From assembly GCF_005771635.1 (NCBI RefSeq), contig NZ_VBWP01000012.1:1-39536 (forward strand): a stretch of DNA of 39,536 nucleotides, in the 5' to 3' direction. Shown here piece by piece: positions 1 through 39,536 of the stretch. Each line of letters starts with the position of its first letter. The stretch's first letter is position 1. The notes beneath the pieces were generated by a model, which saw nothing but the letters and a program-made list of their open reading frames with translations, had not been told where the DNA came from and searched no databases. The stretch is from Culicoidibacter larvae (lineage in GTDB: Bacteria; Bacillota_I; Bacilli_A; Culicoidibacterales; Culicoidibacteraceae). The translations under genes and the position numbers were made by a program.

Positions 1-20
1 AAGTCCTGTCATCCGCACCA
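1..20 (+). other. attL: attL core: 3' end of a tRNA gene
   Basis: The sequence AAGTCCTGTCATCCGCACCA is identical to the last 20 bases of the window. It fits a tRNA 3' end: end of the T-loop, T-stem CCTGT, acceptor strand CATCCGC, discriminator A, then CCA. The matching 5' acceptor strand would be GCGGATG. The A discriminator and this acceptor would suit a tRNA-Leu, but the isoacceptor cannot be read from this fragment. The rest of the tRNA lies outside the window to the left, so this side should keep the intact tRNA gene. Confidence 0.9.
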
Positions 21-30
21 AGATGTAAAA

Positions 31-58
31 AACCCTGTATTATACAGGGTTCTTTTTT
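31..58. terminator. Bidirectional terminator next to attL
   Basis: A perfect 10-bp stem AACCCTGTAT / ATACAGGGTT is followed by CTTTTTT on the plus strand and by TTTTTT on the minus strand. In the plus direction it can end the host tRNA transcript that reads into the prophage. In the minus direction it ends the phage transcript carrying the helix-turn-helix gene. It is phage DNA just inside the attachment core, so the phage brings a terminator to the tRNA it inserts into. Confidence 0.8.
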
Positions 59-93: not shown

Positions 94-339
94 TTATAAA
101 AATAATCGAATATTGACAGGTGAAGTCATTAGTACTGCATTTCTAAGTTTTTCGATGCTTTCCTGATCACCTTTTTTCTCAAGCCAAGACTCTAACAATA
201 TATAATTAATAGTATTGATTTTTCCAAGCTCTCTGTCGCCGCGTAAATACTTACCTAAAGTGCTTGCATTAATCCCGCTTTCTTTTCCGAGTTGGTAATA
301 TGTGATACCATGCTTATCCAAAATCTCTTGCAGTTCCAT
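94..339 (-). CDS. Small helix-turn-helix protein, lysogenic accessory region
   Basis: An 81-residue protein whose first 55 residues look like a Cro/C1-type helix-turn-helix domain (MELQEILDKHGITYYQLGKE, then SGINASTLGKYLRG). The ATG at 339 is chosen because AAAGGAG lies 9 bases upstream; a longer reading to 384 has no good binding site. The C-terminal third (about residues 56-81) matches nothing I recognise. It is the last phage gene before attL, downstream of the endolysin terminator, in the place where prophages often carry genes expressed in the lysogen. It could share a transcript with the small toxin gene at 427-531. Targets are unknown. Confidence 0.7.
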   Translation of the reverse strand: MELQEILDKHGITYYQLGKESGINASTLGKYLRGDRELGKINTINYILLESWLEKKGDQESIEKLRNAVLMTSPVNIRLFL

Positions 340-367: not shown

Positions 368-396
368 TTGCAAAAATAGATCACTTACTATATAAT
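368..396 (+). promoter_or_regulatory. Candidate promoter for antisense antitoxin RNA
   Basis: TTGCAA at 368-373 and TATAAT at 391-396 are separated by exactly 17 bases on the plus strand. Transcription would start near 403 and run rightwards, antisense to the toxin gene at 427-531. No plus-strand protein gene follows, so an antisense RNA is the simplest role. Confidence 0.55.
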
Positions 397-426
397 AGAA
401 CGTGTAAGGGGCTTACGCCCCAAACA

Positions 427-531
427 CTAGCGTTTGCGTTTTTTCTTACCTAATTTCTTTAAGTTAATGATTGCGATTATTAAATTAACTATTGAAGTGG
501 TAAGGATTAACGCTTTTTCTATTATACCCAC
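427..531 (-). CDS. Hol_Tox/TxpA-like small membrane toxin
   Basis: A 34-residue peptide starting at GTG 531: one hydrophobic helix (ALILTTSIVNLIIAIINL) followed by a strongly basic tail (KKLGKKKRKR). The ribosome binding site GAGGAGGTG lies just upstream, while the nearby ATG is useless because it is closed by a stop after two codons. This is the form of the 'putative holin-like toxin' / TxpA peptides of Bacillota, which act on the membrane and are controlled by an antisense RNA. A near-perfect promoter sits upstream (559-587) and a convergent promoter downstream (368-396). A phage-lysis role is less likely because a separate holin module exists at 1.5-2.2 kb. Confidence 0.8.
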   Translation of the reverse strand: MGIIEKALILTTSIVNLIIAIINLKKLGKKKRKR

Positions 532-558
532 ATATTACACCTCCTCTCTACTCTTATA

Positions 559-587
559 ATTATACACCTATAGGACTATAAAGTCAA
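559..587 (-). promoter_or_regulatory. Promoter of the small toxin gene
   Basis: On the minus strand TTGACT (582-587) and TATAAT (559-564) are separated by 17 bases, close to the ideal sigma-A promoter. A short palindrome CCTATAGG lies in the spacer. It follows the endolysin terminator, so the toxin gene is transcribed independently of the late operon. Confidence 0.8.
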
Positions 588-611
588 GCGTTTTGATGAA
601 ATAACTAAAAT

Positions 612-640
612 AAAAAGCGAGCTATCAAAGCTCGCTTTTT
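612..640. terminator. Terminator after the endolysin gene
   Basis: A 12-bp stem AAAAAGCGAGCT / AGCTCGCTTTTT with a 5-base loop directly follows the endolysin stop codon. T-runs occur on both strands, so it can act in both directions. It ends the late operon (minus) and could end the predicted antisense RNA (plus). Confidence 0.85.
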
Positions 641-643
641 GTA

Positions 644-24863: not shown

Positions 24864-25116
24864 TGTAACAATGTAACACGCATGCGCGTATGCGCACTCT
24901 CATGTGGGTATTAGGCGGAAATATATGCATATTATCTGCCTAATAGGTATTTAATTTAAATAACGTCAAAATATTGTTACATTGTTACAAAATACATTTT
25001 CATTATGTATAATATGGGGTTTTAGTGTAACAATTAATTGTTACAAAATGTTACATTGTTACAGCATGTAACAATATATTGTTACACTTACTAAAATTGT
25101 TACACCTATTGTTACA
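24864..25116. repeat. TGTAACA/TGTTACA repeat array: candidate replication origin or operator cluster
   Basis: Twelve copies of the 7-mer TGTAACA or its reverse complement TGTTACA lie in 253 bases: 24864, 24872, 24975, 24983, 25026, 25039, 25049, 25057, 25067, 25080, 25098 and 25110 (starts). Some are tandem with 8-base spacing (TGTTACATTGTTACA), others inverted. An AT-rich stretch (about 24941-24975) and a hairpin lie inside. It follows the primase-helicase gene and precedes the Cse60-like gene. This looks like iterons of a phage origin; binding sites for a regulator are the alternative. Confidence 0.6.
24910..24944. other. Hairpin within the candidate origin
   Basis: Outer stem ATTAGGC / GCCTAAT (24910-24916 and 24938-24944) encloses an inner AATAT/ATATT stem around ATGC. 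On its left is a GC-rich element with ATGCGC repeated (about 24882-24896), and on its right an AT-rich stretch. It is non-coding and lacks a T-run, so it is not a terminator. It may be a structural part of the origin. Confidence 0.5.
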
Positions 25117-27517
25117 TTTTATTTATCCTGAAATATCCTCTTTGGACTCCGTACCTTTTGTTAAATCTAACAGACTTTTCACTTCGCTCCCAGCCTTCAA
25201 TATTATTCAGAATACTGTTAATATCACGAGCTTTCAGGTTGTCGAAATCCCTAAGCTCCCGCTCAAACAATTCACACCATATCTCCATCGCACACACCCG
25301 CATACGTTTCTTAACACCAACTAATTTTCCTGTGATACTATCTTCATGACCACTGATATAATCCCTCCGAAGTCCTAGGTTCATATCGTCCCAATTATCC
25401 GGCAGCGGCTTCTCAAGGTAGTCCTTTATTAAGCCAATCCGTGGATCATGTTCCATGTGCTCCTGCTGTCTCTCCACAGCTGCATCTGCCACATCACCAC
25501 TCAGATAAAGCGGGAACCCAGCCTTATAGGCAGCTATTGCCTCCGCCCATACTTGGTCTATCGTGGCATCGTCCAAGTCATCAAAGACACTTTTAGCGCC
25601 ACCCTCAGATGAAACAACTATCGGCAGAAAGCGTCGGTTTCCAGTACGGTCTCTTAGAAACTCCATATCATTAGTAGTACCGAAGAAAACACACTGGCGT
25701 TTATTGGTAGTTACCCGCCGGGCAAAAGCCCGTCTATAGGTATCCTCTTGCTTGCTGATAAAATGCTTAACTGCCTCAACTTCCGCCTTACGCGTAGCTG
25801 TAAGCTCAGCCATTTCAATCAACCAAGCGCCATCTAAAGACTCATAGGCCTCTTTCCCGCTTACGGTTGTAATCGTATCGGTGTACCAACCTTTAGACAG
25901 CTTCGCAATTAAATGCGATTTACCTAGCCCTTGGGTACCGACCAAAACGGCCATAGTATCAAACTTGGTACCAGGTCTATAAATACGCGCAACTGCTGCA
26001 ACTAGCATCATCATTGATACTGTCTTAGTATATTCGTCATCAGCTGCGCCAAGATAATCGATGAATATTGAACTTGCTCTTTCGGTTCCATCCCACACAA
26101 GAGTATCTAAGTACTCCTTAACCGGATGAAATTGCCGCTCTGCGAAAACTATGTCAGTGGCATCCTGTATCTTCTGCCGTGACTGCATTTCGTAAACCCG
26201 CTCAATGTACCAACGAAGTCCGGCGTCATCGGTATCGCTCCAGTATTGCCCTGTAGTTGACCACGGAAGTTTATCAGGACGCTTAACGAGATTGTTTTTA
26301 AATGTGTCCATACCAACAATACCATGCTTTAAGTTAGGGTCTTGCGTGATAATCAGCTTGAAGTTCTCAATACATTCAACATACTCACCAGTATAGTTGT
26401 CAGTTTTCAACTCTTTAAGCCAACTGTCATCGGTATCCTCTTCTTGGTCATCAACAACATCAAACTCACTTGCAGCACTTGCCAATCGCTCCCGACCAAT
26501 AGTGAGCTTCACCTCTACATCATTCGACGCAAATTGCCGCATCGCCTTAAAACTCGGCAAACGATTAACCGGAGTATCCGGCTTGCTATCTTCGTCTTGG
26601 TCACCGAATAAATGAATGCGGACCAAATCAAAGGCATTGCATAGCTTTCCACCAACCGGGTCGGTTCCATGATTGCTGTAAGCAAACTTATCATCATAGA
26701 TAACCAGCCCGGCAGCACTTGAGCCATTCACATAGGTATATCGTCCTAGCACATCACAGGCAATATACACATCAGGCAAAAAGGTCTCTATCGCTGCATC
26801 AATATCATAGGTTCTGCAAAACGCGCCAATGATGCCATCTTTCTCTAGCGGATCCCCCTGCTTATCGGCGTGGCGCTTTCGGATACCCTCGCTGCGTGAT
26901 GACTCCGGCCACTCACTGGTATCGCGCCAATCCTTATACTCACCAAGAACAGCATCGGCATCGATAACCGTACCATCTATATGATGGTGAATAAACTCCG
27001 CATCACGACTGACACTCGGGTAGTACATCAAGCGGCTTGCCTGATAGGTTGTATCATCAAACCAATCCATGCCAATCTTTTCAGCCAGCTTACGAGCTAT
27101 CGCTTGATACTCATCGGCATCCACATCCCTATTGAGCGGAGCAACGAGCCGCAGCCGTGCTTTTTTCGCTGTATGGCTGTGGGTCGAATAGATAACACAC
27201 TCAAAGTCATGGAACAGCTCAAGCGTATCGATGAAATCATTTGGCGCAAAGTCAGCATCCAAAGTCACCAATGAGCGGGATACTACATTTGACTCCAGTC
27301 GTCGGCCATTCTTTAAATGTCCACCAACAAAACCGCCAACATCCTTAGCCTCAGCCTGCTGTGTCTTACTCATTTTTTTATATTCAGCAGCAGTCTCTTT
27401 TGTTCTGATAACATCAGCCAATTTCTCCACCAGTTCCGGCCAAGTAATGGTCTTATTCTTCCATTTGGTCGATTTCCGGTTTTTACCCTCAGCTATTGTT
27501 ATCTCGATATTTTTCAT
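25112..27517 (-). CDS. VapE-like primase-helicase
   Basis: An 801-residue replication protein. The N-terminal ~250 residues look like a primase-polymerase domain (acidic pair in LVTLDADFAP, and SRLMYYPSVSRD). The C-terminal VirE/VapE-type helicase has Walker A GTQGLGKSHLI, Walker B WLIEMAELT, and FFGTTND followed by RDRTGNRRFLP. Such proteins prime and unwind the phage origin. The start is ATG 27517, with GAAAGGAGAG upstream. The gene is immediately upstream of the repeat array, and its last bases contain the first repeat copies. Confidence 0.92.
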   Translation of the reverse strand: MKNIEITIAEGKNRKSTKWKNKTITWPELVEKLADVIRTKETAAEYKKMSKTQQAEAKDVGGFVGGHLKNGRRLESNVVSRSLVTLDADFAPNDFIDTLELFHDFECVIYSTHSHTAKKARLRLVAPLNRDVDADEYQAIARKLAEKIGMDWFDDTTYQASRLMYYPSVSRDAEFIHHHIDGTVIDADAVLGEYKDWRDTSEWPESSRSEGIRKRHADKQGDPLEKDGIIGAFCRTYDIDAAIETFLPDVYIACDVLGRYTYVNGSSAAGLVIYDDKFAYSNHGTDPVGGKLCNAFDLVRIHLFGDQDEDSKPDTPVNRLPSFKAMRQFASNDVEVKLTIGRERLASAASEFDVVDDQEEDTDDSWLKELKTDNYTGEYVECIENFKLIITQDPNLKHGIVGMDTFKNNLVKRPDKLPWSTTGQYWSDTDDAGLRWYIERVYEMQSRQKIQDATDIVFAERQFHPVKEYLDTLVWDGTERASSIFIDYLGAADDEYTKTVSMMMLVAAVARIYRPGTKFDTMAVLVGTQGLGKSHLIAKLSKGWYTDTITTVSGKEAYESLDGAWLIEMAELTATRKAEVEAVKHFISKQEDTYRRAFARRVTTNKRQCVFFGTTNDMEFLRDRTGNRRFLPIVVSSEGGAKSVFDDLDDATIDQVWAEAIAAYKAGFPLYLSGDVADAAVERQQEHMEHDPRIGLIKDYLEKPLPDNWDDMNLGLRRDYISGHEDSITGKLVGVKKRMRVCAMEIWCELFERELRDFDNLKARDINSILNNIEGWERSEKSVRFNKRYGVQRGYFRINKM

Positions 27518-27550
27518 CAAGCATCTCTCCTTTCTGTAATTTTATTTGAT

Positions 27551-39494: not shown

Positions 39495-39517
39495 TACTTC
39501 TTACTTGGAAAGTACTA
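39492..39517. repeat. Inverted repeat flanking the attR core
   Basis: TAGTACTT (39492-39499) and AAGTACTA (39510-39517) form a perfect 8-bp inverted repeat with a 10-base spacer, ending at the first base of the attachment core. It resembles a core-type recombinase binding arrangement next to the crossover site. Confidence 0.5.
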
Positions 39518-39536
39518 AGTCCTGTCATCCGCACCA
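39517..39536 (+). other. attR: attR core: duplicated tRNA 3' end
   Basis: The last 20 bases repeat the first 20 exactly (AAGTCCTGTCATCCGCACCA). Upstream bases here do not continue a tRNA (no normal T-loop), so this copy is the fragment carried in by the phage. Together the repeats mark the exact prophage ends. Confidence 0.9.

What the first reader, a model, noticed from the sequence alone, without database searches (positions are those of the whole stretch)
368..641. Probable type I toxin-antitoxin pair in the lysogenic tail of the prophage
A 34-codon gene (427-531, minus) encodes a single-helix peptide with a KKKRKR tail, the form of Hol_Tox/TxpA toxins. It has a near-consensus promoter (TTGACT-17-TATAAT). 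A second promoter (TTGCAA-17-TATAAT, 368-396) faces it from downstream and would make an RNA antisense to the whole gene, ending at the 612-640 hairpin. The pair lies outside the late operon, between the endolysin and attL, so it should be active in the lysogen. It may serve prophage maintenance or defence.
Basis: partly seen in the sequence, partly recalled or inferred. Interest (0 to 1): 0.7.

Follow-up and report, generated by a model that had tools for sequence, protein, structure and literature searches.

The report
YonT-like RNA-silenced prophage toxin locus
This prophage carries a tiny membrane-peptide gene that is probably kept silent by an RNA made from the opposite strand; the same RNA hairpin layout recurs beside many different peptides in phages of related bacteria, which suggests a broad, little-noticed class of such systems.

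Summary
A GTG-started 34-codon ORF (427-531, minus) has a strong Shine-Dalgarno site and a near-consensus promoter. A promoter faces it (368-396, plus) and a bidirectional terminator lies at 610-642. The locus sits between the endolysin and attL; attL is confirmed by joins to two host contigs. The Hol_Tox assignment fails: no Pfam, PHROG or NCBIfam match. The closest known system is YonT/SR6 of phage SPbeta: membrane helix plus polybasic tail, strong SD, a G-rich hairpin right after the stop codon, and beyond it an inverted -10 box for the antisense RNA. Scans for that hairpin found the same cassette at 51 of 61 sites with an extended inverted -10 and at 18 of 18 sites with TTACAC (window included; two sites are in both sets). 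Controls: 0 of 133 (opposite strand), 26 of 2660 (random sites). The peptides fall into many groups; the hairpin and inverted promoter are what they share. The window's antisense -10 lacks the extended TG, and an HTH gene stands where most have a second small membrane peptide. It fits neither the YonT profile nor Rfam SR6. Best reading: a YonT/SR6-like type I toxin-antitoxin variant. Expression and toxicity are untested.

The parts
1..20 (.). attL core, 3' end of tRNA-Leu; the same 20 bp at 39517-39536 (attR)
   Evidence: repeat; joins to host contigs C2 and C8 and tRNA-Leu(aag)
94..339 (-). 81-aa Cro/CI-type HTH gene, directly downstream of the peptide gene on the same strand
   Evidence: PF01381 HTH_3 E 1.3e-5 and PF13443 HTH_26 E 5.6e-5, both over cut-off
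368..396 (+). predicted promoter of the antisense RNA, TTGCAA-17-TATAAT (no extended TG)
   Evidence: an inverted -10 just beyond the hairpin recurs in the related cassettes
402..427 (.). palindrome; GGGGC(GUAA)GCCCC hairpin in the peptide mRNA after the stop codon, and 5'-terminal hairpin of the antisense RNA; the only GGGGCGNRAGCCCC in this genome assembly
   Evidence: recurrent in related cassettes
402..642 (+). predicted antisense RNA of about 240 nt, covering the whole peptide ORF and its SD
   Evidence: promoter and terminator, fold z -5.7; no transcript data
427..531 (-). 34-codon gene: one hydrophobic helix plus KKKRKR tail; predicted toxin
   Evidence: single helix 3-33, mean pLDDT 94.9 from one sequence; YonT scores best among 38 compared peptides
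538..545 (-). Shine-Dalgarno AGGAGGTG, close to the predicted 5' end (about 552)
559..587 (-). sigma-A-type promoter TTGACT-17-TATAAT
610..642 (.). bidirectional terminator-like hairpin: end of the late operon on minus, end of the antisense RNA on plus (inferred)

Best explanation
A type I toxin-antitoxin locus that works like YonT/SR6. The minus strand makes a short-leader mRNA from about 552 with a very strong SD. It encodes a 34-residue membrane peptide with a polybasic tail that would harm the host membrane. The plus strand makes an antisense RNA that starts at about 402, on the hairpin that ends the toxin reading frame, and runs through the whole ORF and the anti-SD region to the terminator at 642. 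Pairing would lead to RNase III decay and block translation, so the peptide stays silent while the prophage is present; loss of the prophage or a fall in the antisense RNA would free it. The HTH gene downstream would be read from the same message and may control either promoter. Shown here: the anatomy, its recurrence, the prophage site. Inferred: transcription, pairing, decay, toxicity, role.
For: Same layout in SPbeta yonT/SR6, Bacillus phage EZ-2018a and streptococcal phages. Pooled scan sites (133 sites) scored by fixed rules (SD-led ORF of 20-90 codons ending within 45 nt of the hairpin, sigma-A promoter of at least 9/12): 51 of 61 sites with the extended inverted -10; 18 of 18 sites with TTACAC, 17 besides the window, two of them also among the 61; opposite strand 0 of 133, random sites 26 of 2660. 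Other GGGGCNNNNGCCCC sites in the same loci 0 of 139; control stem GGGGT 0 of 15. In the window's class 2 of 395 genomes hold the looser pattern, the window's and one other, and that other shows the cassette by eye. The plus strand folds better than minus over 428-520. YonT is the top-scoring peptide of 38. In streptococcal phages such cassettes also lie near the endolysin and the att/int end. Read in PMC5848175, parts 1-3 of 6: SR6 is an antisense RNA overlapping the yonT 3' end and promoting its decay.
Against: No homologue of the peptide itself was found by tblastn. It does not reach the YonT profile NF047537, and the RNA does not match Rfam SR6 even at E 10. The antisense -10 lacks the extended TG present in 34 of 36 distinct cassettes. 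Hairpin plus a bare -10 without TTACAC is a poor predictor: 1 of 56 such sites has the cassette (L062). The second membrane peptide found after the hairpin in 28 of 36 distinct cassettes (opposite-strand control 10 of 36) is missing. Some cassettes encode peptides that are not hydrophobic, which fits a membrane toxin poorly. No expression or toxicity data.
Confidence: 0.77

Rival explanations
1. The peptide is a phage membrane protein for lysis or superinfection exclusion (late or moron gene), and the antisense RNA only tunes it; it is not a toxin-antitoxin pair.
For: It sits beside the endolysin and has its own promoter outside the late operon; streptococcal cassettes also sit near the endolysin; some cassette peptides of ruminococcal or metagenomic origin are not hydrophobic.
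Against: The only characterised member of this layout, YonT, is described as so toxic that the wild-type gene could not be cloned by the authors, though they note an earlier report of an inducible plasmid (PMC5848175). No PHROG family matches the peptide. A terminator-like hairpin separates it from the endolysin.
Confidence: 0.12
2. Hol_Tox/TxpA type I pair.
For: Size, one helix, basic tail, facing antisense promoter.
Against: No PF16935 match at the locus, while the model is over cut-off in 3 of 149 genomes of the class; the hairpin and inverted -10 layout is that of yonT/SR6.
Confidence: 0.04
3. The palindrome 402-427 is a DNA operator of the HTH protein, and control is transcriptional; the antisense RNA is minor or absent.
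For: A palindrome upstream of an HTH gene, at the start site of the plus promoter; no extended -10 in the window.
Against: The same hairpin is kept beside HTH proteins of different sequence, which lie downstream in some loci and upstream on the other strand in others; GGGGCNNNNGCCCC sites in the same loci outside the scan patterns have no cassette (0 of 139).
Confidence: 0.05
4. The ORF is a chance reading frame within a structured non-coding RNA.
For: Strong fold on both strands; no peptide homologue.
Against: Consensus SD and promoter, one hydrophobic helix with a basic tail, and an SD-led ORF with promoter at the same place in 67 of 132 other scan sites.
Confidence: 0.02

Closest known systems
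yonT-yoyJ/SR6 type I toxin-antitoxin system of Bacillus phage SPbeta (NCBIfam NF047537; Rfam RF02892)
   Same: Prophage-borne; SD-strong, GTG-started gene for a membrane peptide with a polybasic tail; G-rich hairpin after the stop codon; inverted -10 of the antisense RNA just beyond it.
   Different: 34 not 58 residues; no profile or Rfam match; different hairpin sequence; no extended -10 in the antisense promoter; no YoyJ-like second peptide but an HTH gene; a terminator-like hairpin for the antisense RNA, whereas the paper reports no typical terminators after yonT, yoyJ and yonU and could not map the 3' ends exactly.
phrog_3399 peptides of streptococcal phages (function unknown)
   Same: Same cassette; in the pneumococcal and oral-streptococcal type the 14-nt hairpin differs from the window's by one loop base and is also followed by TTACAC; near endolysin and att/int end.
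   Different: Other peptide sequence (49-52 residues in that type); a second small membrane peptide follows; antisense -10 is the extended TGATAAAAT.
Clostridioides difficile prophage type I toxins (CD0956.2, CD0977.1 and kin)
   Same: Reported as 34 to 59 residues, with hydrophobic N-terminus, lysine-rich C-terminus and often a prophage location (passages of PMC6563280 and PMC7699646).
   Different: No sequence or layout of these loci was compared here.
TxpA/RatA and BsrG/SR4; Pfam Hol_Tox PF16935
   Same: Small hydrophobic peptide, antisense RNA antitoxin, prophage site.
   Different: No PF16935 match; TxpA and BsrG sequences were not compared.

Membership tests
yonT/SR6 | Toxin matches NCBIfam NF047537 | tested here: not met
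   No NCBIfam match up to E 10 in hmmscan; own-genome search with the model gave 4 matches, none at this locus or over cut-off; of 28 cassette peptides only YonT itself matches up to E 0.01
yonT/SR6 | Antitoxin RNA matches Rfam RF02892 | tested here: not met
   Not among the 22 matches up to E 10 for 300-700; at gathering threshold RF02892 hits only SPbeta among 14 loci
yonT/SR6 | Layout: SD-led helix-plus-polybasic ORF, hairpin after stop, inverted -10 beyond it | tested here: met
yonT/SR6 | Extended -10 in the antisense promoter | tested here: not met
   Window reads CTATATAAT; -35 TTGCAA present
yonT/SR6 | Second toxin gene (yoyJ) under the same antisense RNA | tested here: not met
   No small ATG-started membrane ORF within 110 nt after the hairpin in the window
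type I toxin-antitoxin systems (any) | Antisense RNA is made and pairs with the toxin mRNA | not testable with these tools
   needs RNA-seq or Northern blot
type I toxin-antitoxin systems (any) | Peptide is toxic and the RNA relieves it | not testable with these tools
   needs expression in a laboratory host
Hol_Tox PF16935 | Match to the Pfam model | tested here: not met
   Searches (E up to 1; E up to 10): no match at the locus
TxpA/RatA | Sequence similarity to TxpA | not tested
   no TxpA sequence was fetched

The most novel reading that the evidence does not exclude
The window is one member of a large, little-noticed class of type I systems in phages of Bacillota. What is conserved is an RNA module, a G4-C4 hairpin (most often GGGGC-GNRA-GCCCC) plus an inverted antisense promoter at a narrow distance, while the peptide it silences is swapped freely: C-terminal basic, N-terminal basic or hardly charged helices, and even non-hydrophobic peptides. 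Often a second membrane peptide, and in several loci an HTH gene, travel with it. The antitoxin would then be a portable silencing platform, and the hairpin a handle for finding toxic peptides that protein searches miss.
Probability: 0.5. Interest if true: 0.75.

Novelty: new variant of a known kind. Interest (0 to 1): 0.6.

Why it matters
Type I toxins are short and variable, so protein searches miss them; here the peptide has no detectable homologue, and related cassettes were found only through the RNA hairpin and the inverted promoter. If the class is real, one DNA signature reveals many peptide genes of unknown function in Streptococcus, Bacillus and clostridial phages and genomes. It would also show that the RNA half of such systems can be more conserved than the toxin, and would make the function of families such as phrog_3399 testable.

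Tried and rejected
Peptide homologues by tblastn in phages, plasmids, 198 relatives and 392 genomes of the phylum: only the window itself, plus two weak hits (47-48% identity over 27-30 residues) rejected by eye: one holds stops, the other lies opposite a long open frame.

Hol_Tox: tested with PF16935 and rejected.

Rfam at gathering threshold on the whole window: no match. Up to E 10 on 300-700: 22 matches, all below their gathering scores.

Endolysin and HTH as anchors in IMG/VR: only the window's own record; no phage match for the endolysin. The terminase hits 1727 phage records, too broad to help with this locus.

Lactobacillus phage LfeInf matches only the promoter/terminator side, and I saw no such hairpin in the stretch read; it was dropped. 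I first meant to drop SpSL1 and 23TH as well, but the re-check shows that they carry a variant of the cassette by eye (see full report).

Outer stem around the hairpin: 6 bp or more in 11 of 35 distinct contexts against 10.8% for swapped flanks, but 10 of 34 non-cassette hairpins also reach 6. I do not use it as proof of covariation.

Stem variants: GGGGAG/CTCCCC gave 2 cassettes of 10; GGGGT/ACCCC 0 of 15.

Sites with the extended -10 that fail the fixed rules (10 of 61): by eye five look like the same cassette with a weaker SD or promoter score, no start that passes, or a broken 5' end (L057, L106, L150, L153, L154), and five do not (L157, L168, L172, L174, L189). I keep the rule-based 51 of 61.

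The shuffle test of peptide similarity keeps composition but not the order helix-then-tail, so it does not prove common descent.

Full report
What is there. The window is a whole contig (C12, 39,536 bp) of its genome and has the length and end sequence of IMG/VR record UViG_2914375287. It is a prophage in the 3' end of tRNA-Leu(aag): the 20-bp repeat at its two ends continues into host contigs C2 and C8, which hold 57 bp of its left and right ends respectively.

The locus. On the minus strand: promoter TTGACT-17-TATAAT (587-559), SD AGGAGGTG (545-538), GTG start, 34 codons, stop at 429-427, then the palindrome GTGTTTGGGGCGTAAGCCCCTTACAC (427-402), then an 81-aa Cro/CI-type HTH gene (339-94). 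On the plus strand: promoter TTGCAA-17-TATAAT (368-396), whose start site would fall at the palindrome, and a terminator-like hairpin at 610-642. The predicted plus RNA has a 5' hairpin (402-427), a long imperfect hairpin (about 429-519), a mostly single-stranded stretch complementary to the toxin start and SD, and the terminator. The 428-520 part folds better as plus RNA (-24.4 kcal/mol, z -4.3) than as minus RNA (-15.5, z -3.3). AlphaFold2 gives one helix 3-33 for the peptide, mean pLDDT 94.9, from a single sequence.

Not Hol_Tox. The peptide matches nothing in Pfam and PHROGs up to E 1 or NCBIfam up to E 10. PF16935 searched in the genome gives three sub-threshold matches elsewhere and none here, while it is over cut-off in 3 of 149 genomes of the class. 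Tblastn finds no relative in phages or plasmids.

How relatives were found. A sensitive blastn of 343-645 against phages gave 13 records. Six pneumococcal records and Phage SK137 align at the TATAAT plus palindrome (from about 390), Bacillus phage EZ-2018a at the SD, and SpSL1, 23TH and LfeInf at the promoter side. Reading these loci showed the same cassette in phiARI0995, phiARI0131-2, SK137 and EZ-2018a: promoter, SD, short ORF with a hydrophobic stretch and a K/R-rich tail, hairpin, inverted -10. The YonT profile appeared as a weak match of the EZ-2018a peptide (E 1.3). The SPbeta yonT locus, fetched from its record, has the same order. So the shape and the inverted promoter can stay while the stem letters change.

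Literature on the known case. Reif et al. 2018 (PMC5848175; parts 1-3 of 6 read) describe SR6 as an antisense RNA that overlaps the yonT 3' end by about 65 nt, starts from an extended -10 promoter, promotes decay of the yonT mRNA, and also covers the start of a second, weaker toxin gene, yoyJ. Durand et al. 2012 (PMC3531473; passages only) note YonT's highly basic C-terminus and very strong SD.

Test by pattern scan. Four scans for GGGGCGNRAGCCCC with an inverted -10 or with TTACAC (72, 17, 14 and 47 stretches, overlapping) gave 133 loci with 133 sites, the window's own record among them. Fixed rules: SD-led ORF of 20-90 codons whose stop lies between 45 nt before and 3 nt into the hairpin, and a promoter of at least 9/12 within 100 nt upstream. 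Result: 68 of 133 sites (67 of 132 without the window). By class: 51 of 61 with the extended -10 (ATTATANCA); 16 of 16 with TTACAC but no ATTATANCA, the window among them; 1 of 56 with only a bare ATTATA (L062). All sites with TTACAC: 18 of 18. The opposite strand of the same hairpins gave 0 of 133, random positions in the same loci 26 of 2660, and 139 other GGGGCNNNNGCCCC sites in the same loci 0. An altered stem GGGGT/ACCCC gave 0 of 15, GGGGAG/CTCCCC 2 of 10. An earlier filter on hydrophobicity and K/R content gave 11 of 72, 17 of 17, 4 of 14 and 22 of 47 for the four scans, with 0 on the opposite strand each time. Many of the 17 TTACAC hits are near-identical pneumococcal-type cassettes, so they are not independent.

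Who has it. Named organisms whose loci pass in the genome scan include Streptococcus species, Anaerovirgula multivorans, Ruminococcus and clostridial MAGs; one Bacteroidota hit (L157) has no cassette. In the window's own class 2 of 395 genomes hold the looser pattern: the window's and G091, whose locus L191 shows the cassette by eye (promoter, SD, peptide basic at the N-terminus with one helix, hairpin, a bare inverted -10 as in the window, a further hydrophobic reading frame). The exact hairpin occurs once in the window's genome. The 68 sites hold 36 distinct peptides; with three more from SPbeta, EZ-2018a and phage 315.1 they form 16 clusters at the score used. Some have the basic stretch at the N-terminus, some hardly any, and the ruminococcal type is not hydrophobic. 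Of 28 representatives scanned, one (YonT) matches an NCBIfam toxin model and one has a weak TPR match; phrog_3399 matches four, and two further PHROGs one each; no Pfam family matches up to E 0.01. In 28 of 36 distinct cassettes an ATG-started membrane peptide follows within 110 nt of the hairpin, against 10 of 36 on the opposite strand. HTH genes lie downstream in the window and L162 (Pfam matches over cut-off), downstream but below cut-off in L138 and the streptococcal type, and upstream on the other strand in L079, L122 and phage UPM1.

How it most likely works. By analogy with YonT/SR6, the plus RNA starts on the hairpin shared with the toxin message, pairs with it, and leads to RNase III decay. 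In the window it would also cover the SD and start codon, so a translation block is likely too. These steps are inferred. The peptide's toxicity is inferred from its form and from YonT.

Limits. The window's antisense promoter lacks the extended TG found in 34 of 36 distinct cassettes; the other exception is L062. The second peptide is missing, and neither the YonT profile nor Rfam SR6 matches. It is therefore like YonT/SR6 in layout but not a member by sequence. The best peptide by local alignment among 38 is YonT (score 47; 0 of 300 shuffles as high), and four others also had 0 of 300, but the shuffles do not keep the helix-then-tail order.

Literature search for the class. Searches in the open PMC library gave no paper that uses the words YonT-like, YonT family, YonT homolog or SR6-like (0 papers). 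The pneumococcal prophage review mentions a type I toxin in one passage only, an Fst-family gene beside an attachment site (PMC8637289). Papers outside that library were not searched, so the class may be in print elsewhere.

Noticed in passing
G000:C2 end, G000:C8 start, window 1-20 and 39517-39536: The assembly breaks exactly at the 20-bp att core, with 57 bp of prophage on each host contig; this fits a mix of integrated and excised copies, so the prophage may excise actively (inference).
   Followed up: partly
G000:C3:203364-204872 (L005, L006): A second copy of a tRNA-Leu(cag) 3' end, longer than the 20-mer, lies 1.49 kb from the tRNA gene: possibly a small element or remnant integrated there.
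   Followed up: no
L062, L146, L148, L149, L159, L164, L165, L171 and similar loci (Ruminococcus, Clostridia MAGs and IMG/VR contigs): Cassettes with the same hairpin and promoters encode a peptide that is not hydrophobic (IEKAL...KVTI...KPKPxKA...ESK type); a membrane toxin is unlikely there.
   Followed up: partly
phrog_3399; streptococcal phages such as 315.1, PH10, phi3396 (L052-L056): A PHROG of unknown function whose members sit in this kind of cassette.
   Followed up: partly
L042 and L046 (phages SpSL1 and 23TH), complement of about 870-1250: A variant cassette by eye with a different stem (ACCCC-UUCG-GGGGU) and an N-terminally basic 34-codon ORF that is not annotated in the records.
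   Followed up: partly
window 25049-25104: Palindromic TGTTACA repeats in the gap just downstream (minus strand) of the large gene 25112-27520; an operator or origin candidate.
   Followed up: no
window 31-51: Terminator-like hairpin just inside attL that could serve the host tRNA-Leu after integration.
   Followed up: no
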